Assembly: GCF_013376095.1 (NCBI RefSeq)
Contig: NZ_JAAMFN010000016.1
Span: 1-64,000, forward strand
Reading direction: 5' to 3'
DNA: 64,000 bases
Source: Arthrobacter sp. SDTb3-6
GTDB taxonomy: Bacteria > Actinomycetota > Actinomycetes > Actinomycetales > Micrococcaceae
Made by a program: the position numbers and the translations under genes
The notes under the pieces: generated by a model
What the model saw: the letters and a program-made list of their open reading frames with translations, nothing else
Databases searched by the model: none
Told to the model about the DNA's origin: nothing
Shown here: piece after piece, positions 39,933 through 48,394 of the stretch
Layout: every line of letters begins with the position of its first letter
How positions within the stretch are numbered: position 1 is the first letter of the stretch

Positions 39933-42065
39933 ATGACCCTCCCCCTGAGTCCCGATGCCACAACCGGGCCGGCCGTTGCCGAGCAGCCCTTCGATGAGAA
40001 CCTGTGGCTGGAAGACATCCACGGCAGCGACGCCATGGCCTGGGTGCGGGAGCACAATGCGCGCACCGACGCCGCCCTGGTCAACCCGGCCTACACTGCG
40101 CTGGAGGCCGCCGTGCTGGAGGTGCTCGATTCCAAGGACCGCATCGCCATGGTGTCCAAGCACGGGGACTGGTACTACAACTTTTGGCGGGACGAGGCGA
40201 ACCCGCGCGGGCTGTGGCGGCGCACGGACTGGGACAGCTACGTCTCCGGCAGCCCGGCGTGGCAGCTGATCCTGGACGTGGATGCCCTGGCGGCGGCGGA
40301 AGGAACGGAGTGGCTGTGGGCCGGCGCCTCGCTGCTGCGGCCCCCGGCCGGGGAGGAATACCGCCTGGCCATGGTGGCTCTCTCCCCCGACGGCGGCGAC
40401 GCCGTCACGTACCGGGAGTTCGATCTGGCGGCCCGGGCCTTTGTGCCGGGCGGCTTTGAACTGCCGACGGCGAAGACGCGCCTGAGCTGGGTGGATGCGG
40501 ACACGCTGTACGTGGGCACGGACACAGGCACCGGCTCCATGACGGCTTCCTCCTATCCCGCCGCGTCGCGCGTGCTGCACCGTGGCGAGTCCCTGGCGGA
40601 ACTGGCGGCGAAGCAGCCGCTGTTTTCCGTGCCGCCGGACCACCTCAGCGGCGGGGTGTCCCATGACAGCACGCCCGGCTTTGAGCGCGACGTGGCCTAC
40701 GACGTCCTGGACTTCTTCCGGTCCCGCAGCTACCTGCGGACGGGCGACGACTGGGTGCACCTTGACGTGCCCGATGACATGAACGTTTCCCTGCACAAGG
40801 AGTGGCTGCTGCTGCGCCCGCGCACGGACTGGGCCGTGGCCGGCTCCGTGCATGCGGCCGGGGCGCTGCTGGCCATTGAACTGGACGCGTTCCTGGCCGG
40901 CGGCCGTGATGTCCGGACCGTTTTTGCGCCGACGCCCGCCCAGTCCCTGCAGTCCTGGAGCTGGACCCGCGACTACCTGCTGCTCAACCTGCTCGAGGAC
41001 GTCTCCTCCAAAATCCTGGTGCTGGACCCTGCCCGGGAATGGGCGGCCAGCGGGCTGGATGCGTGCCCGCCGCTGCACTCGGTGGATGCGTACGCCGTCG
41101 ACGATGAGGACCCGGCTGCCGGCAATGACTACTGGCTGGTCGCCACCGGCTTTCTCACCCCGTCCACGGTGTACCGGGGGCAGCTGCCAACCGGCGGGCC
41201 GGCGGCGGTGGTCCGGCAGGCGCCGTCGTTCTTCAACGAAGCGGGCTACGCGGTGGAGCAGCACTTCGCCGTGTCCCGTGACGGGACGCGCATCCCCTAC
41301 TTCCAGGTGGGGCCGAAGGACTTGGTGCTCGACGGCGGCAACCCCACCCTGCTGGGCGGCTACGGCGGCTTTGAGGTTTCCCGGACGCCTTCGTACAGCG
41401 GGGCCGTGGGGCGCAGCTGGCTGGAGCGCCGCGCCGTGGTGGACGGCGTGGAGCGCGGCGGCGTCTACGTGGTGGCGAACATCCGCGGCGGCGGCGAGTA
41501 CGGCCCGGGCTGGCACACGGCCGCGCTGCAGGAAAACCGGCACCGCGCCTATGAAGACTTTGCCGCCGTGGCCCGCGACCTGGCGGCCCGCGGGGTGGCC
41601 CGGCCCAAACACCTGGGCTGCGCCGGCGGCAGCAACGGCGGCCTGCTGGTGGGCAACATGCTCACGCACTACCCGGAACTGTTCGGCGCCATTTCCTGCG
41701 GGGTGCCGCTGCTGGACATGCGCCGGTACACAAAGCTGTCCGCCGGCGCTTCCTGGATCGCCGAGTACGGCGACCCGGACGTGCCGGCACAGTGGGAGTT
41801 CATCAAGACCTTCTCCCCCTACCACCTGCTGCAGGCCGGGCTTGCGTATCCGCCCTTGTTCATCTGGACCGCGACGTCCGACGACCGGGTGGGGCCGGTG
41901 CAGGCGCGGAAGATGGCCGCCCGGATGGAATCGCTCGGGCTGCCCGTCTGGTTCCACGAGGCACTGGAGGGCGGCCACGCGGGGGCCGGAAACAACGCGC
42001 AGGCGGCCCGCCTGCATACGGCGTCGCACGAATTCCTCTGGCGGGCGCTGACCGGCGGGTTCTAA
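39933..42065 (+). CDS. Prolyl oligopeptidase (S9A serine peptidase)
   Basis: The 710-residue cytoplasmic peptidase lacks a signal sequence. The N-terminal half is the seven-bladed beta-propeller gating domain, and the C-terminal third is the alpha/beta hydrolase. The catalytic triad is Ser567 in GCAGGSNGGLLVGN, Asp650 in TSDDRVGP and His682 in EGGHAG. NIRGGGEYGPGWH is the conserved loop before the nucleophile. The family cleaves after proline in short peptides. The start is ATG 39933. It is divergent from the FAD/NAD(P)-binding gene, with a 61-bp spacer. Confidence 0.9.
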   Translation: MTLPLSPDATTGPAVAEQPFDENLWLEDIHGSDAMAWVREHNARTDAALVNPAYTALEAAVLEVLDSKDRIAMVSKHGDWYYNFWRDEANPRGLWRRTDWDSYVSGSPAWQLILDVDALAAAEGTEWLWAGASLLRPPAGEEYRLAMVALSPDGGDAVTYREFDLAARAFVPGGFELPTAKTRLSWVDADTLYVGTDTGTGSMTASSYPAASRVLHRGESLAELAAKQPLFSVPPDHLSGGVSHDSTPGFERDVAYDVLDFFRSRSYLRTGDDWVHLDVPDDMNVSLHKEWLLLRPRTDWAVAGSVHAAGALLAIELDAFLAGGRDVRTVFAPTPAQSLQSWSWTRDYLLLNLLEDVSSKILVLDPAREWAASGLDACPPLHSVDAYAVDDEDPAAGNDYWLVATGFLTPSTVYRGQLPTGGPAAVVRQAPSFFNEAGYAVEQHFAVSRDGTRIPYFQVGPKDLVLDGGNPTLLGGYGGFEVSRTPSYSGAVGRSWLERRAVVDGVERGGVYVVANIRGGGEYGPGWHTAALQENRHRAYEDFAAVARDLAARGVARPKHLGCAGGSNGGLLVGNMLTHYPELFGAISCGVPLLDMRRYTKLSAGASWIAEYGDPDVPAQWEFIKTFSPYHLLQAGLAYPPLFIWTATSDDRVGPVQARKMAARMESLGLPVWFHEALEGGHAGAGNNAQAARLHTASHEFLWRALTGGF

Positions 42066-42177: not shown

Positions 42178-42265
42178 GGAGACGTGCCAGAGCGGCCGAA
42201 TGGGCTTCACTGCTAATGAAGTGTGGGGCACAACTCCACCGGGGGTTCAAATCCCCCCGTCTCCG
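42178..42265 (+). tRNA. tRNA-Ser (anticodon GCT)
   Basis: The 88-nt class II tRNA has acceptor stem GGAGACG/CGTCTCC, anticodon stem-loop CTTCA-CTGCTAA-TGAAG showing GCT, a long variable arm and T-loop TTCAAAT. No CCA is encoded. TTGCTT and TAAAGT spaced by 18 bp lie upstream as a possible promoter. Confidence 0.95.
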
Positions 42266-42273
42266 CATCAAAA

Positions 42274-42378: not shown

Positions 42379-44601
42379 CTACCCCGCCTGGGCGAGCACC
42401 AGCGGGAGCACCTGGTCCACGCCGGCCTGGCGCAGGGTGCGGCCGGCAACGGTCAGCGTCCAGCGGCTGTCGACGAGGTCGTCGATGAGCAGCACGGGCC
42501 CGCCGGGATACGCGGCGATGGCGGCGGCCAGCCCTGGGCCCACACTGAACCGCTCCCAGACCCCCGCCAGCCGGTAGGCGCTGTTGCCGCCGCGCCCGCC
42601 CGTGGGCCCGCCGAACTCCAGCGACAGTTCGCCCAGGTACGGCAGCCGGCCGATCTGGCAGATCGCCTGCGCCAGCGAAGACACCAATTGCGGCTTCCCC
42701 CGCGACGGCAGGGACACCACCGCCACGGGACGGCCCTGCCCCGCCCAGCGGGCCTGGCCCCAGTCGCGCAACACGGCCACCACCGCCTGCGCCATGGCCG
42801 GGTCGATCGGCACATCCGGGGCCCCGGCGGCAAACACCGCCCGCAGCGCGTTGCCCCAGCCCAGGTCGGTCAGCCTGGCCAGCGCCCGTCCCGGCCCCAC
42901 CTGATCGTCGGGCTTGAGGCGGCCCTTGACGGGCACGCCGAGCCGGTCCATTCCGGTGGGCCACTGGGTGCGCGGGTCCAGGGGCAGGCCCGCGTGGCTC
43001 AGCGACTCGCTGGCGGCCGCCACGGCACCGGAGCCGACGTCCATGGGGAACCAGCGCCCGGCGCACGAATCGCAGCGGCCGCACGGCGCCGCCGTCGAAT
43101 CATCCAGGGCCGCGGCCAGGTACTCCATCCGGCACCCCGCGGCCTGTTCATACTCGACCATGGCGTGCTGCTCGTCGACGCGGGCCTGGGCAATGCGCCG
43201 GTAGCGCTCGGCGTCGTAAGCCCAGGGCTGCCCGGTGGATTCCCAGCCCCCGGCCACCCGGCGCACCGCCCCGTCCACGGCGAGCACCTTCAGCAGCAGT
43301 TCCAACGGCGTGCGGCGCAGGTCCACCCTGGCTTCCAGGGCCGGGGTGGACATGGGCTTCCCGGCCTCCCCCAGCGCACCCAGGACCGCCGTGGCCTTCT
43401 CGGCCGACGGCATGGACGCCGTGGCAAAGTAGCGCCAGATCTCCGCATCCTCGCTGCCGGGCAGCAGCAGGACGTCCGCGTTGGCGCTGCCACGGCCGGC
43501 GCGGCCCACCTGCTGGTAGTAGGCCACGGGCGAGGACGGAGCGCCCAGGTGGACCACGAACCCCAGGTCCGGCTTGTCGAAGCCCATGCCGAGCGCGCTC
43601 GTGGCGACGAGTGCCTTGACCTCGTTGTTTTTCAACGCCTCCTCCAGCGACTCCCGGTCCATGGGGTCCGTCCGCCCGGTGTAGGGGCGGACCACGTGCC
43701 CGGCTTCGGCCAGCAGCCGTGCCGTGTCCTCGGCCGCAGACACCGTCAGCGTGTAGATGATGCCGCTGCCAGGCATCTCCGCGAGGTGGGTCAGCAGCCA
43801 GCCGAGCCGGTCGCGGGAGTCGGCGAGCCGCAGCACGCCCAGGCGCAGGGACTTGCGGGCCAGCGGACCGCGGATGGTGAACACGCCGGCACCGAGCTGT
43901 TCCTCAATGTCTGCCACCACCCGGGAGTTGGCCGTGGCCGTCGTGGCCAGCACCGGCACCGAGGCGGGCAGCTGCGCAATGAGGTCCGCAATGCGGCGGT
44001 AGTCCGGGCGGAAGTCGTGGCCCCAGTCCGAAATGCAGTGTGCCTCGTCGATGACCAGCAGGCCGGTGCGGCGGATCAGCGCGGGCAGCTGGTTTTCCCG
44101 GAAGGAGGGGTTGGTCAGCCTTTCCGGGGACACCAGCAGCACGTCCACCTCGTCGGCCGCCAGCGCCGCGGAAATCTCCCCCCACTCGGTGGCGTTCGCG
44201 GAGTTGATGGCCATGGCCCGCACGCCGGCGCGTTCGGCGGCGGCCACCTGGTCGCGCATCAGGGCCAGCAGCGGCGAGACGATCAGCGTTGGCCCGGACC
44301 CGCGGGCCCGCAGCAGCAGAGAGGAGACAAAGTAGACAGCCGACTTTCCCCAGCCGGTTCGCTGGACCACCAAGGCGCGGCGCCCGGCGTCGACCAGGGC
44401 CTCGATCGCCTCAAACTGGCCGTCGTGGAAGTCGGCGTCGTCCCGCCCGACCAGCCGCCGCAGGATCTCCAACGCCTGCAACCGGGTGGGCGCAGGCCCG
44501 GCCGTGCCCACCGCTGTCCGGCCGCCCATGGCCTGGAAGTCGCTGCCCATGCTGCTGGCGTTGCCGTGGTCCATCCCCTGGGTGTGCTCGCTTGGTGTCA
44601 T
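42379..44601 (-). CDS. RecQ-type DNA helicase fused to a phosphoribosyltransferase-like domain
   Basis: This is a 740-residue protein. Residues about 45-440 are a RecQ helicase core with Walker A TGWGKSAVYF (GWGKS at 83-87), DEAH box at 185-188 in LLVIDEAHCISDWGHDFRPD, TTATANSRVV and QQVGRAGRGSANADV. A zinc-binding set CRMEYLA...CGRCDSC follows. The C-terminal ~200 residues resemble a PRTase, ending with the PRPP-binding-like motif VLLIDDLVDSRWT at about 703-715. The start is ATG 44601 (MTPSEHTQGM). RecQ unwinds 3'-tailed and branched DNA; the PRTase-like part suggests a nucleotide-sensing or nucleotide-modifying role that I cannot define. Confidence 0.85.
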   Translation of the reverse strand: MTPSEHTQGMDHGNASSMGSDFQAMGGRTAVGTAGPAPTRLQALEILRRLVGRDDADFHDGQFEAIEALVDAGRRALVVQRTGWGKSAVYFVSSLLLRARGSGPTLIVSPLLALMRDQVAAAERAGVRAMAINSANATEWGEISAALAADEVDVLLVSPERLTNPSFRENQLPALIRRTGLLVIDEAHCISDWGHDFRPDYRRIADLIAQLPASVPVLATTATANSRVVADIEEQLGAGVFTIRGPLARKSLRLGVLRLADSRDRLGWLLTHLAEMPGSGIIYTLTVSAAEDTARLLAEAGHVVRPYTGRTDPMDRESLEEALKNNEVKALVATSALGMGFDKPDLGFVVHLGAPSSPVAYYQQVGRAGRGSANADVLLLPGSEDAEIWRYFATASMPSAEKATAVLGALGEAGKPMSTPALEARVDLRRTPLELLLKVLAVDGAVRRVAGGWESTGQPWAYDAERYRRIAQARVDEQHAMVEYEQAAGCRMEYLAAALDDSTAAPCGRCDSCAGRWFPMDVGSGAVAAASESLSHAGLPLDPRTQWPTGMDRLGVPVKGRLKPDDQVGPGRALARLTDLGWGNALRAVFAAGAPDVPIDPAMAQAVVAVLRDWGQARWAGQGRPVAVVSLPSRGKPQLVSSLAQAICQIGRLPYLGELSLEFGGPTGGRGGNSAYRLAGVWERFSVGPGLAAAIAAYPGGPVLLIDDLVDSRWTLTVAGRTLRQAGVDQVLPLVLAQAG

Positions 44602-44765
44602 GCCACCCAGTATTCCAGTGCCCACCGACGCCCGTCCCCGCCGGCAGGCCAATCTGTGGACAACACGCGCCGGAGAACTCCCTGTGCAGGCCCCTTGCAC
44701 GTGTCCCGCCGCATCCCCGTTGACAACGACTCCCCGGCGGGCGGGGCTGCCGGTAGCATGGAGAC

Positions 44766-46178
44766 GTGACTACCGCAGAGAATGTACCCGTTGACCTGTC
44801 CGCGTCGTTCAAGGCCTACGACGTGCGCGGCATTGTGGGCGAGACCATTACGGCCGCGTCCGTGAAAGCCGTGGGTGCGGCGTTCACCGACGTGCTGGAA
44901 CTGGCAGGTGAAACCGTGCTGGTGGGCGGGGACATGCGCCCCTCCTCCCCGGGCTTCTGCCAGGCCTTCGCCGAGGGTGCAGCGAGCCGCGGCGCCAATG
45001 TGCAGCTGCTCGGGCTGATCTCCACCGACGAGCTGTATTTTGCCTGCGGGGCGCTGAACGCGGCCGGTGCCGTCTTTACCGCCAGCCACAACCCGGCCGA
45101 ATACAACGGCATGAAAATGGCCAAGGCCGGCGCCGTCCCCGTCTCCTCCGAGACCGGCCTGATGGACATCCGCGACCTCGCCCAAAAGTACCTGGCCGAC
45201 GGCATCCCGGCCGGCACCAGGGGCACCATCGTAGACACCGACGTGCTGGCCAAGTACGCCGCCTACCTGCGCACCCTGGTGGACCTCTCCGGTTCCCGGC
45301 CGCTGAAGATCGTGGTGGACGCCGGCAACGGCATGGCCGGCATGACCACCCCCGCCGTACTGGGCGACACCCTCCTGCCCGGCCTGCCCTTTGAGATCGT
45401 GCCCCTGTACTTCGAGCTGGACGGCACCTTCCCAAACCACCCGGCCAACCCGCTGGAGCCGGCCAACCTGGCCGACCTGCAGGCCGCCGTCGTGGCCCAC
45501 GGCGCAGACATCGGCCTGGCGTTCGACGGCGACGCGGACCGCTGCTTCGTCATCGACGAACAAGGCGCCCCGGTCTCCCCGTCGGCCGTCACCGCCCTGG
45601 TCGCACGCAGGGAGATCGCCCGGGCCAAGGCCGGCGGCGAGGAACGCCCCGCCGTCATCCACAACCTCATCACCTCCCGCGCCGTGCCCGAACTCATCGC
45701 GCACGACGGCGGGCGCCCCGTCCGCACCCGGGTGGGCCACTCCTTCATCAAGGCCACCATGGCCGCCGAAGGCGCCGTGTTTGGCGGGGAGCACTCCGCG
45801 CACTACTACTTCCGCGACTTCTTCAACGCCGACACCGGCATGCTGGCCGCCATGCACGTCCTGGCCGCCCTGGGCGAGCAGGAGGGGCCGCTCTCGGACC
45901 TGGGCCGCGAATACGAACCCTATGTCTCCAGCGGCGAGATCAACTCCCAGCTCGCCGACGTCCCGGCCGCCGTGGCCCGGGTTCGCGCCGCATACACGCG
46001 CGACGACGTCACCATCGACGAGCTCGACGGCCTCACCTTCACCGCCAAGGACGGCCGCTGGTGGTTCAACCTGCGCGCCTCCAACACCGAACCGTTCCTG
46101 CGCCTGAACGCCGAGGCCGAGGACGCCGTCACCATGGCCGACATCCGCGACGACGTCCTGGCCCTGGTCCGCCAATAA
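44766..46178 (+). CDS. manB: Phosphomannomutase/phosphoglucomutase
   Basis: The 470-residue alpha-D-phosphohexomutase has four domains: SFKAYDVRGIVGETI at the N-terminus, the phosphoserine loop VFTASHNPAEYNGMK (about 93-107), the metal loop LAFDGDADRCFVID, the sugar-binding FGGEHSAHYYFRD and the phosphate-binding RASNTEPFLRLNAEA. It interconverts mannose 6- and 1-phosphate and probably the glucose phosphates, feeding GDP-mannose and glycan synthesis. The start is GTG 44766. It is divergent from the RecQ-PRTase gene and 34 bp ahead of an unknown gene. Confidence 0.9.
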   Translation: MTTAENVPVDLSASFKAYDVRGIVGETITAASVKAVGAAFTDVLELAGETVLVGGDMRPSSPGFCQAFAEGAASRGANVQLLGLISTDELYFACGALNAAGAVFTASHNPAEYNGMKMAKAGAVPVSSETGLMDIRDLAQKYLADGIPAGTRGTIVDTDVLAKYAAYLRTLVDLSGSRPLKIVVDAGNGMAGMTTPAVLGDTLLPGLPFEIVPLYFELDGTFPNHPANPLEPANLADLQAAVVAHGADIGLAFDGDADRCFVIDEQGAPVSPSAVTALVARREIARAKAGGEERPAVIHNLITSRAVPELIAHDGGRPVRTRVGHSFIKATMAAEGAVFGGEHSAHYYFRDFFNADTGMLAAMHVLAALGEQEGPLSDLGREYEPYVSSGEINSQLADVPAAVARVRAAYTRDDVTIDELDGLTFTAKDGRWWFNLRASNTEPFLRLNAEAEDAVTMADIRDDVLALVRQ

Positions 46179-46656: not shown

Positions 46657-47100
46657 TTGCGGATCAACGCGTTTTCCGACGTCAGCCTCCGGGTGCTCAT
46701 GCTGTTGTCCACGAAGCCGGAACTGCTCACCACACGGGAGCTGGCGGAGCTCGTGGACACCCCGTACAACCATGTCAGCAAGGCCGTGTTGAAGTTGCGG
46801 CAGATGGGGATGGTGGTTTCCGTGCGCGGCCGCAGCGGGGGCGTGCGCATCTCCGAACAGGGCCTGCAGGCGACGGTGGGCGGGGTACTGCGCGTCCTGG
46901 ACAGCCACCCGGACGTCGCCGCGTGCCAGACGGAAATGGGCGACTGCCCGCTGTTGCACGCCTGCGGGCTGCGCGGCGCGCTCAGCCGTGCGCGTGAGGC
47001 GTTTTACGCGTCCCTGGACACCGTGACGATTTCCAGCCTGGCCATCCCGGTGCACGCCGGGCCGGTTCCCGTGACGTTGCACACACACCGGGACGCTTGA
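46657..47100 (+). CDS. nsrR: Rrf2-family nitric-oxide-sensing repressor NsrR
   Basis: The 147-residue iron-sulfur regulator has a winged helix at residues 1-75 (SDVSLRVLMLLS, TTRELAELVDTPYNHVSKAV, VSVRGRSGGVRI) and three cysteines at about 90, 97 and 103 (ACQTEMGDCPLLHACG) for an Fe-S cluster that reacts with NO. The start is the rare codon TTG at 46657, fixed by homology of MRINAFSDVSLRVL to NsrR N-termini. It lies directly upstream of hmp, its classical target. Confidence 0.88.
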   Translation: MRINAFSDVSLRVLMLLSTKPELLTTRELAELVDTPYNHVSKAVLKLRQMGMVVSVRGRSGGVRISEQGLQATVGGVLRVLDSHPDVAACQTEMGDCPLLHACGLRGALSRAREAFYASLDTVTISSLAIPVHAGPVPVTLHTHRDA

Positions 47101-47161: not shown

Positions 47162-47184
47162 ATGTCGTATTTCAAATGCTACTT
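47162..47184 (+). promoter_or_regulatory. NsrR-like operator upstream of hmp
   Basis: Two 11-bp half-sites around a central C: ATGTCGTATTT, C, AAATGCTACTT. This resembles the AAGATGCATTT-N-AAATGCATCTT pattern known for NsrR at about 16 of 22 positions. It ends 38 bp before the hmp start, where a bound repressor would block transcription. Confidence 0.55.
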
Positions 47185-47221
47185 TGGGGTTGTCACCACG
47201 GATTCCACCCAAGGAGTACAG

Positions 47222-48394
47222 ATGCTTTCGGAAAAGTCCCGCCCCCTGATTGAAGCCACGCTGCCGCTGGTCGGCTCCCGCCTGGGCGCCATCACGCCGA
47301 ACTTCTATGCACGCATGTTTGCCGCCCACCCGGAGCTCCTGGACGGCCTGTTCAGCCGGGCCAACCAAAACAACGGCGAACAACAAAAGGCCCTGGCCGG
47401 CTCCATCGCGGGATTCGCCTCCGCGCTCGTGGCCAACCCGGACATCATTCCCGAGCAGATGCTCAGCCGCATCGCCCACAAGCACACCTCGCTGGGGATC
47501 ACCGAGGACCAGTACCAGATTGTCTACAAGTACCTTTTCGAGGCCATCGCCGAAGAGCTCGCCGACGTCATCACGGCGGAGATCGCCGAAGCATGGACCG
47601 AGGTTTACTGGCTCATGGCCAATGCCCTCGTCAAGATCGAAAAGGGCCTCTACGCCATCCAGGCCAATGACAGGATGTGGATGCCCTGGACAGTGGTGGA
47701 GAAGAACCCGGCCGGCACCGACTGCATGACGTTTGTCCTGGAGCCCGCCGACGACACCCCCGTCACGACGGCCCGCCCCGGCCAGTTCGTCTCGGTCAGG
47801 GTCGCGCTGCCCGACGGCCTGCGCCAGTGCCGCCAGTACTCACTCTCAGCCGACGTGGAATCCACCACCCGCCGGGTGTTCACCACCAAGCGGGACGACG
47901 GCGGAGAGGTTTCCCCCGTGCTGCACAGGAACATCGAGGTGGGCGACGTCGTCGAACTGTCCAACCCCTATGGTGACGTCACCCTGGACGACGGCGACGG
48001 TCCGGTCGTGTTTGCCACCGCCGGAATCGGCTGCACCCCCTCGGCGTCGGCCCTGCGCTCGCTCGCCAGCAACGGCGTCGACCGAGAGGTCCTGGTGCTC
48101 CACGCCGAGAAGAACCTCGAGGCGTGGGCGCTGCGTGAGCAGATGACCGCCGATGTGGCCGCCATCGACGGCGCGAACCTGACGTTGTGGCTGGAGGAGC
48201 CCACCGACGGCTTCAACAAGGGCTTCATGACCCTCGAGGGCCTGGACATTCCGGCCGACGCGTCCATGTACGTCTGCGGCCCGCTGCCGTTCATGAAGGC
48301 CATCCGCAACCAGGCCATCGACGCCGGCATCCCCGCCACGAAGATCCACTACGAGGTCTTCGGGCCGGACCTCTGGCTGGCGGGGGCGAACTAG
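47222..48394 (+). CDS. hmp: Flavohemoprotein (nitric oxide dioxygenase)
   Basis: The 390-residue NO-detoxifying enzyme oxidises NO to nitrate with O2 and NAD(P)H. The globin domain (1-140) has Tyr29 in PNFYARMF and the proximal heme histidine at about 88 in IAHKHTSLGI. The FAD domain has RQYSLSADVE, and the NAD domain has ATAGIGCTPSASALR, YVCGPLPFMKAIR and the C-terminal HYEVFGPDLWL. ATG 47222 has AAGGAG upstream, so the longer ORF that begins inside the operator is rejected. It is controlled by the adjacent NsrR. Confidence 0.94.
   Translation: MLSEKSRPLIEATLPLVGSRLGAITPNFYARMFAAHPELLDGLFSRANQNNGEQQKALAGSIAGFASALVANPDIIPEQMLSRIAHKHTSLGITEDQYQIVYKYLFEAIAEELADVITAEIAEAWTEVYWLMANALVKIEKGLYAIQANDRMWMPWTVVEKNPAGTDCMTFVLEPADDTPVTTARPGQFVSVRVALPDGLRQCRQYSLSADVESTTRRVFTTKRDDGGEVSPVLHRNIEVGDVVELSNPYGDVTLDDGDGPVVFATAGIGCTPSASALRSLASNGVDREVLVLHAEKNLEAWALREQMTADVAAIDGANLTLWLEEPTDGFNKGFMTLEGLDIPADASMYVCGPLPFMKAIRNQAIDAGIPATKIHYEVFGPDLWLAGAN

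What the first reader, a model, noticed from the sequence alone, without database searches (positions are those of the whole stretch)
42379..44601. RecQ helicase fused to a phosphoribosyltransferase-like domain
A canonical DEAH/zinc RecQ core is followed by a domain with the PRPP-binding-like motif VLLIDDLVDSRWT. Linking DNA unwinding to nucleotide metabolism is unusual and could reflect nucleotide sensing at damaged DNA, or a ComF-like role in DNA uptake or repair.
Basis: partly seen in the sequence, partly recalled or inferred. Interest (0 to 1): 0.6.

Follow-up and report, generated by a model that had tools for sequence, protein, structure and literature searches.

The report
RqlH helicase with eroded PRTase tail
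This soil-bacterium gene encodes RqlH, an already described DNA helicase fused to a phosphoribosyltransferase-like domain; what may be new is that copies lacking the usual partner protein seem to have worn down the part of that domain known to be toxic.

Summary
Window 42379-44601, minus strand, encodes 740 aa: RecQ-type ATPase, winged-helix-like linker, tetracysteine zinc site and a C-terminal phosphoribosyltransferase (PRTase) fold, structurally nearest to H. pylori ComF. It is not novel: this is RqlH (Mycobacterium smegmatis, 2012; E. coli RqlH/RqlI, 2015; PsyrT in PADLOC, 707 bits full length). It is the only RecQ-type helicase found in this genome, and no RqlI/PsyrA partner was found. Most likely role: a chromosomal DNA-repair helicase; its relatives share a PafBC-type DNA-damage promoter element just before the start codon. 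Not seen in five literature searches: RqlH beside RqlI keeps the PRPP-loop DD (14 of 14) and a flexible-loop Q-K (13 of 14); RqlH without RqlI never has Q-K (0 of 71), and 21 of 71 lost DD, 18 of them at the residue equivalent to D663, whose mutation detoxifies E. coli RqlH. The window copy keeps DD but lost the flexible-loop residues. Few independent evolutionary contrasts support this. DNA uptake and nucleotide sensing remain unsupported.

The parts
42379..44601 (-). rqlH coding sequence, 740 aa, ATG at 44601
43432..44478 (-). RecQ-type SF2 ATPase core (about residues 42-390)
44341..44358 (-). Walker A TGWGKS (residues 82-87)
   Evidence: invariant in 10 of 10 rows
44038..44049 (-). DEAH box (residues 185-188)
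   Evidence: invariant in 10 of 10 rows
43255..43407 (-). winged-helix-like linker between core and zinc site (residues 399-449)
   Evidence: HTH_IclR, E 0.004, below cut-off
43063..43134 (-). tetracysteine zinc site C490-x16-C507-x2-C510-x2-C513
42382..42909 (-). ComF-like PRTase domain (about residues 565-740)
42592..42612 (-). flexible-loop region (residues 664-670, GGPTGGR); lacks the Q-K of RqlI-paired RqlH and, just after, the N shared with ComF
   Evidence: (pLDDT < 50)
42457..42483 (-). PRPP-loop DDLVDSRWT (residues 707-715); DD kept, Trp in place of the second Gly of a TGGT turn
44609..44631 (-). PafBC-type promoter element GCGTCGGTG-N8-AATACT, 7 nt before the ATG (leaderless mRNA inferred); 3 mismatches to the published consensus
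44766..46178 (+). divergent neighbour, phosphomannomutase/phosphoglucomutase; context, not part of the system
39933..42065 (+). convergent neighbour, oligopeptidase-like (below the model's cut-off); context

Best explanation
The gene is a chromosomal RqlH without the RqlI antitoxin. Shown here: domain order, PRTase fold (by model), no other RecQ-type helicase and no RqlI partner found in this genome, conserved location, and a PafBC-type element conserved at the start of the gene in relatives. Inferred: DNA damage makes single-stranded DNA, PafBC activates transcription, and RqlH translocates 3' to 5' on that DNA and unwinds duplexes as a stand-in for RecQ. The PRTase tail is a remodelled ComF-like module. 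Because the flexible-loop residues that would close over PRPP are gone while DD and the family Trp remain, it more likely binds a nucleotide or single-stranded DNA, or serves structurally, than transfers phosphoribosyl groups; this would explain why the cell tolerates it without RqlI.
For: Full-length match to PsyrT/RqlH, 707 bits over 6-684 of 689. Same architecture in named relatives; identity to the window protein: E. coli plasmid 41%, Nostoc 44%, Sinorhizobium 41%, the archaeon Halanaeroarchaeum 40%, Tsukamurella 48%, Nonomuraea 58%, Streptomyces 59%. Only RecQ-type match in the genome: the six others score 21-38 bits, and the best TIGR01389 score in the genome, 261.6 bits against a cut-off of 640, is this gene. 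One of the two HRDC matches lies in a UvrD/PcrA-like helicase; the other, in a 477-aa frame, I did not classify. The single DprA is canonical (TIGR00732) and scores 79 bits against PsyrA, versus 577 and 470 for two true partners. Phosphomannomutase beside rqlH in 78 of 80 relatives. Published consensus TTGTCRGTG-N8-TANNNT within 3 mismatches upstream in 67 of 82 Micrococcaceae loci against 11% of shuffles, within 2 in 22 of 82 against 0.8%. The same element precedes sbcD, radA, xseA, clpX, hflX and a umuD-like gene in this genome. An M. smegmatis protein listed as RecQ, MSMEG_5935, is 1.9-fold lower without PafBC under standard growth (PMC5656591, passages). The PRTase part is dispensable for the M. 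smegmatis ATPase and helicase (as cited in PMC4670107, passage).
Against: No function was measured. The window's own promoter element has 3 mismatches, and such matches are not clearly commoner in the window than chance (38 found, 28 expected, 6 of 100 shuffles as many): its support is positional conservation in relatives. The PafBC genes were not looked for in this genome. DD is intact in this copy and in all 80 close relatives, so catalysis is not excluded. The tail model is of middling confidence, Foldseek gave no match at E <= 0.001, and the full-length model is poor (pLDDT 67.5, pTM 0.48). That MSMEG_5935 is RqlH is my inference. The genome is a draft of 144 contigs (99.97% complete by the tool's estimate).
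Confidence: 0.6

Rival explanations
1. The tail is an active PRTase toxin or effector as in E. coli RqlH, and this bacterium holds it in check by another antitoxin or by tight damage-dependent expression.
For: DD is kept in the window copy and all 80 close relatives. E. coli RqlH toxicity maps to this domain and is lost in D663A (PMC4670107, passages). A damage-type promoter would keep expression low.
Against: The flexible-loop Q (14 of 14 ComF, 16 of 16 paired RqlH) and N (13 of 14 ComF, 16 of 16 paired) are G and G here. No RqlI-like protein found in the genome. DD was lost in three or four orphan lineages, which suggests relaxed constraint.
Confidence: 0.22
2. The tail is a PRPP or nucleotide sensor that tunes the helicase.
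For: ComFC binds PRPP, AMP and ADP through this fold (PMC9005727, passages); PurR and PyrR show that PRTase folds can become regulators (same paper). DD is kept here.
Against: The second Gly of the phosphate-binding turn is Trp in 67 of 67 orphans, and 21 of 71 orphans lost DD without losing the domain, so ligand binding by the usual route is unlikely to be the common function of orphans.
Confidence: 0.15
3. It is an anti-phage toxin-antitoxin toxin (PsyrT) as a defence-annotation tool would report.
For: PADLOC PsyrT 707 bits.
Against: No PsyrA partner found in the genome; conserved location beside phosphomannomutase in 78 of 80 relatives; the window's tail has no match in 50,697 phage records at E <= 1e-5.
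Confidence: 0.03

Closest known systems
RqlH of Mycobacterium smegmatis (Ordonez, Unciuleac and Shuman 2012; title seen in reference lists; paper not held; its content is recalled)
   Same: ATPase, linker, tetracysteine zinc site and ComF-like PRTase tail in one chain; actinobacterial; no RqlI (PMC4670107, passage)
E. coli RqlH-RqlI (PsyrTA)
   Same: Same full-length architecture; DD of the PRPP loop shared (second Asp: 663 in a 698-aa E. coli RqlH; 708 here)
   Different: E. coli rqlH sits upstream of rqlI, keeps flexible-loop K, Q, K and N, and is genotoxic without RqlI; the window copy has no partner and lacks those residues
ShosT of ShosTA
   Same: PRTase fold, Z 8.5, tied with adenine PRTases; partner antitoxin is a DprA homologue (PMC9122126, passage)
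   Different: Reported PRTase and pyrophosphatase toxin (review PMC12593503, passage); helicase fusion not described there
ComFC (ComF) of natural transformation
   Same: Best fold match, Z 9.8; many of the weaker matches of the RqlH PRTase profile in other genomes are stand-alone ComF-sized frames, 14 of which I aligned
   Different: Not fused to a helicase; longer PPi loop with an R-G-Y/F-type motif in most, flexible-loop Q and N, and TTG-type PRPP loop in most; the window copy has none of these
Canonical RecQ (TIGR01389)
   Same: Helicase core; zinc-site spacing (recalled for E. coli RecQ)
   Different: Winged-helix-like linker before the zinc site, no RQC or HRDC; 275 bits against a cut-off of 640

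Membership tests
RqlH | RecQ-type ATPase core with DEAH box | tested here: met
RqlH | tetracysteine zinc site after a family-specific linker | tested here: met
   C-x16-C-x2-C-x2-C at 490-513; linker about 390-470
RqlH | C-terminal ComF-like PRTase module, no RQC/HRDC | tested here: met
RqlH | 3'-5' translocase and helicase activity | not testable with these tools
   needs purified protein
RqlHI / PsyrTA toxin-antitoxin system | RqlI (DprA-like, PsyrA) gene next to rqlH | tested here: not met
RqlHI / PsyrTA toxin-antitoxin system | toxicity without RqlI, dependent on D663 | not testable with these tools
   equivalent D708 present; toxicity needs an expression test
RqlHI / PsyrTA toxin-antitoxin system | flexible-loop Q-K shared by partner-linked copies (a feature defined in this report) | tested here: not met
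   G-G in the window copy
Canonical RecQ | TIGR01389 above cut-off; RQC and HRDC domains | tested here: not met
ComF / ComFC | PRTase fold | tested here: met
ComF / ComFC | flexible-loop Q and N (14 and 13 of 14 ComF), longer PPi loop, TTG-type PRPP loop | tested here: not met
ComF / ComFC | role in DNA uptake | not tested
   no competence assay; the two neighbours named are not competence genes

The most novel reading that the evidence does not exclude
RqlH lineages that live without the antitoxin RqlI have disarmed the toxic PRTase domain in several ways: none has the flexible-loop Q-K of partner-linked copies, many (as here) also lost the ComF-wide Q and N, and three or four lineages lost the DD, in 9 of 21 such copies by the same Asp-to-Ala change that abolishes toxicity in E. 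coli RqlH. The tail then persists for a non-catalytic job centred on the invariant Trp. This would answer the question left open in 2015 of why most Gram-positive bacteria tolerate RqlH alone.
Probability: 0.4. Interest if true: 0.55.

Novelty: already known. Interest (0 to 1): 0.35.

Why it matters
As found, it is an ordinary member of a published family, better annotated RqlH than RecQ, PsyrT or DpdF. The pattern around it matters more: it turns 'why is RqlH alone not toxic in Gram-positives' (PMC4670107 reports no major differences between the two sorts of RqlH, passage) into a residue-level, testable statement, and it places an orphan rqlH under a probable PafBC DNA-damage promoter.

Tried and rejected
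Considered and dropped: HRDC/RQC tail; LexA/SOS box upstream (no better than shuffles); phage or plasmid cargo (with the window's tail as query: no phage record among 50,697; 10 of 72,556 plasmid records, several of 0.75 to 11.9 Mb; two viral contigs in all); DpdF membership (PADLOC's DpdF models match the shared helicase core, and some match RqlH-like tails); 'unusual fusion' (73 of 396 genomes).

Weak points of my own pattern. On the helicase-region tree (quick method) pairing needs 5 changes and Q-K 5, but only 1 independent contrast lies on well-supported branches, 2 without three long-branch rows, so no significance can be claimed; the association may be one or a few events. One paired copy (L163) lacks the K of Q-K; two (L191, L111) lack the K seven residues before the Q, while two orphans keep that one. 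Q alone is kept in 30 of 67 orphans and N in 29 of 67; DD in 50 of 71. The four DD changes on the tree may include one regain (L185). Rows dropped from the tree: L193 (same allele as L092, interrupted gene), L111 (contig of 3,425 bases, frames overlapping) and L211 (contig end). Five diverse loci and two Arthrobacter loci had too little downstream sequence to be called. The partner of L095 is spread over two frames. Orphan means no RqlI within the few kilobases fetched, not in the whole genome, except for the window's genome. Paired rows include 9 of the same phylum and 7 from other sources, two of these the same E. coli allele.

The pattern NTGTCRGTG-N9-ATNCT, matched within 2 mismatches in 73 of 82, was read off the same sequences, so it is descriptive; the test is the published consensus, against simple (single-base) shuffles. 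Of 20 own-genome loci read after (21 matches, 6 for the reversed pattern) I chose 6 by eye for naming.

Led nowhere: (wrong frame); the 2012 paper.

Full report
WHAT IS THERE. The coordinates are exact, but the gene lies on the minus strand: ATG at 44601, stop at 42379, 740 aa. I take the + strand frame over the same stretch (817 aa) to be a GC-rich shadow frame. Residues 42-390 are a RecQ-type ATPase (DEAD 83 bits, Helicase_C 61 bits; best solved relatives are RecQ proteins). A winged-helix-like stretch (399-449) stands before a tetracysteine site spaced C-x16-C-x2-C-x2-C. No RQC or HRDC was matched at E <= 1.

THE TAIL. Residues 703-715 read VLLIDDLVDSRWT. Pfam's PRTase model gives only E 0.079 here but 5e-10 for the E. 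coli plasmid homologue. A profile of nine tails matches 46 PDB sequences at E <= 1, 43 of them PRPP synthetases or PRTases (best E 5e-4); an eight-row profile of partner-linked tails gives 32 of 33. AlphaFold on 516-740 with 29 sequences gives pLDDT 73.5, pTM 0.76. Foldseek lists PRTases at the top but none at E <= 0.001; VIA-align, a re-ranking of those, puts H. pylori ComF first (Z 9.8, 171 residues, above the 7 to 8 that the tool calls typical without a clear match), then adenine PRTases and ShosT, tied at 8.5 to 8.7. The lowest-confidence inner segment (149-155 of the model, residues 664-670) sits where ComFC has its flexible loop between the PPi and PRPP loops (PMC9005727, passages).

IT IS RqlH. 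PADLOC's PsyrT model matches nearly end to end (707 bits). RqlH was named in M. smegmatis in 2012 (Ordonez et al.; seen only as a title in reference lists; its content is recalled). PMC4670107 (passages) reports that E. coli RqlH is genotoxic through this PRTase domain when RqlI is missing, that D663A or a four-residue change there removes most effects, that RqlI interaction needs the domain, that the domain is dispensable for the M. smegmatis ATPase and helicase, and that 99.6% of Gram-positive bacteria with RqlH lack RqlI. PMC5512222 (passages) and PMC9122126 (passages) place it beside ComFC/DprA and the shosTA, syrTA and rqlHI systems. So the fusion is already known.

THIS GENOME. Searching the whole genome with the protein gave 7 matches: itself at 1632 bits and six others at 21-38 bits. 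TIGR01389 finds nothing above cut-off; its best is this gene. HRDC occurs twice: in a UvrD/PcrA-like protein and in a 477-aa frame not examined further. The only DprA is canonical (TIGR00732), follows a ComM-like frame read by eye, and is far from PsyrA in score (79 bits; partners score 577 and 470). So this RqlH is the only RecQ-type helicase found, and no RqlI was found. In the 80 named relatives fetched (of 433 found; by their titles Arthrobacter and other Micrococcaceae, one labelled Sporosarcina), phosphomannomutase is beside rqlH in 78 and the oligopeptidase in 60 within the stretch held: a conserved site.

DISTRIBUTION. The tail profile matches 57 of 296 genomes of the phylum at 76 bits or more in long frames (counted by me) and 73 of 396, the first sample included, at E <= 1e-20. 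Many of the weaker matches listed are ComF-sized frames. Of the 57, 15 also hold a canonical RecQ above cut-off, against 21 of the other 239. With the window's tail as query: plasmid records 10 of 72,556, phages 0 of 50,697; an E. coli tail as query added an Acinetobacter plasmid. Partnered copies sit in a type I restriction locus (E. coli plasmid), a BREX locus (Acinetobacter plasmid), beside a DprA gene on a Nostoc plasmid, and between gntU and yhgN on an E. coli chromosome.

PAIRED VERSUS ORPHAN. I labelled 88 diverse loci (window, plasmid, E. coli, viral and phylum loci) by the presence of an RqlI homologue within the fetched flanks: 16 paired, 67 orphan, 5 unknown. Paired: DD 16 of 16, flexible-loop Q 16 of 16, the following K 15 of 16, N 16 of 16. 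Orphan: Q 30 of 67, N 29 of 67; second Asp of DD lost in 18 of 67 (Ala in 9), first Asp alone lost in 3 more. On the 85 rows used with the tree (14 paired, 71 orphan) Q-K is 13 of 14 against 0 of 71 and DD 14 of 14 against 50 of 71. The second Asp is residue 663 in a 698-aa E. coli RqlH, the length given for RqlH in PMC4670107, so I equate it with D663; that the strain's numbering is the same as F11's is inferred (its RqlI is annotated 431 aa, the paper says 400). A further aspartate (D579 in the window protein) goes with DD: 94% in DD-keeping against 2 of 15 in DD-less copies of the first set. The Trp of DSRWT is present in 67 of 67 orphans and 15 of 16 paired. Fourteen stand-alone ComF proteins all have the flexible-loop Q and 13 of 14 the N; the K is in none. 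The window copy has G at Q and G at N; its 80 close relatives keep DD, have G at Q in 80 and G or A at N in 80. PMC4670107 states that no major differences were seen between RqlH with and without RqlI; these are differences. Caveat: on a helicase-region tree (quick method, midpoint root) DD needs 4 changes, all among orphan or unknown rows, and pairing 5, but only 1-2 independent contrasts lie on well-supported branches, so this is a lead, not a statistical result. I saw no report of it in the listings; the library holds only part of the literature and not the 2012 paper.

PROMOTER. Upstream of rqlH in 82 Micrococcaceae loci the published RecA-independent consensus (tTGTCRgtg-8-TannnT, PMC5656591, passage; PafBC acts through it, PMC6789036, passages) is met within 2 mismatches in 22 and within 3 in 67, against 0.8% and 11% of shuffles; among 62 other orphans 13 are within 2 (shuffles 0.8%), among 14 paired 2 (shuffles 1.8%). 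The element ends a few bases before the ATG in the relatives printed, which points to a leaderless message and supports the ATG at 44601. The window copy has 3 mismatches, which alone would be chance level. In the same genome the element within 1 mismatch occurs 21 times (reversed pattern 6), before sbcD, radA, xseA, clpX, hflX and a umuD-like gene among the six of 20 that I named. LexA boxes were not better than shuffles. In M. smegmatis a protein listed as RecQ (MSMEG_5935) is 1.9-fold lower in a pafBC mutant under standard growth; that it is RqlH is inferred from that species lacking a canonical RecQ (recalled). PafBC is activated by single-stranded DNA (PMC11804915, abstract and passages). 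I did not search for pafBC in this genome.

HOW IT MOST LIKELY WORKS. Damage produces single-stranded DNA; PafBC turns on rqlH; the motor (core, linker, zinc site) moves 3' to 5' and unwinds, doing the work of the missing RecQ (inferred from the M. smegmatis enzyme). The tail does not drive this. In partner-linked copies it is probably a PRPP-using, toxic module held by RqlI (ShosT, with the same fold, is reported as a PRTase and pyrophosphatase). Here it has lost residues of the loop that closes the site and probably survives as a binding or structural module.

VERDICT. Real, correctly located, already described. What I did not find in print is the residue pattern that separates partner-linked from orphan RqlH, and the promoter link.

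Noticed in passing
L013 (NZ_JADHDY010000003.1): A record titled Sporosarcina beigongshangi carries a Micrococcaceae-type rqlH 75% identical in the tail: probably a mislabelled or contaminated genome.
   Followed up: no
L096 (Tsukamurella, record called plasmid 21): An RqlH with a decayed PRPP loop (LLVVDESGTGW) lies directly upstream of yajC-secD-secF-apt-relA, a chromosome-like neighbourhood.
   Followed up: partly
L193:1501-6272 (E. coli AVS0935): rqlH is interrupted by an IS3-type element between helicase and PRTase parts while the partner dprA-like gene stays intact.
   Followed up: no
L191 (Acinetobacter plasmid pYUSHP14-1): An rqlH-rqlI pair followed by a DUF262 gene is nested between pglX and pglZ of a BREX locus.
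   Followed up: no
L094 (Halanaeroarchaeum plasmid): An archaeal orphan RqlH with DD and flexible-loop Q but no following K.
   Followed up: partly
L188 (G265 C18): A divergent PsyrT-like protein with a PsyrA-like partner whose PRPP loop has Ala (DDIYDSGAT) where other RqlH have Trp.
   Followed up: partly
window 42178-42266 +: tRNA-Ser (gct) between the oligopeptidase-like gene and rqlH.
   Followed up: no
window 46657-47100 + and 47162-48394 +: By eye, a Rrf2/NsrR-like regulator next to a flavohaemoglobin-like gene.
   Followed up: no
PADLOC models PDLC03928 and the DpdF set: They score this orphan chromosomal RqlH highly (707 and up to 313 bits), so defence scans may over-call PsyrT or DpdF in actinobacteria.
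   Followed up: partly
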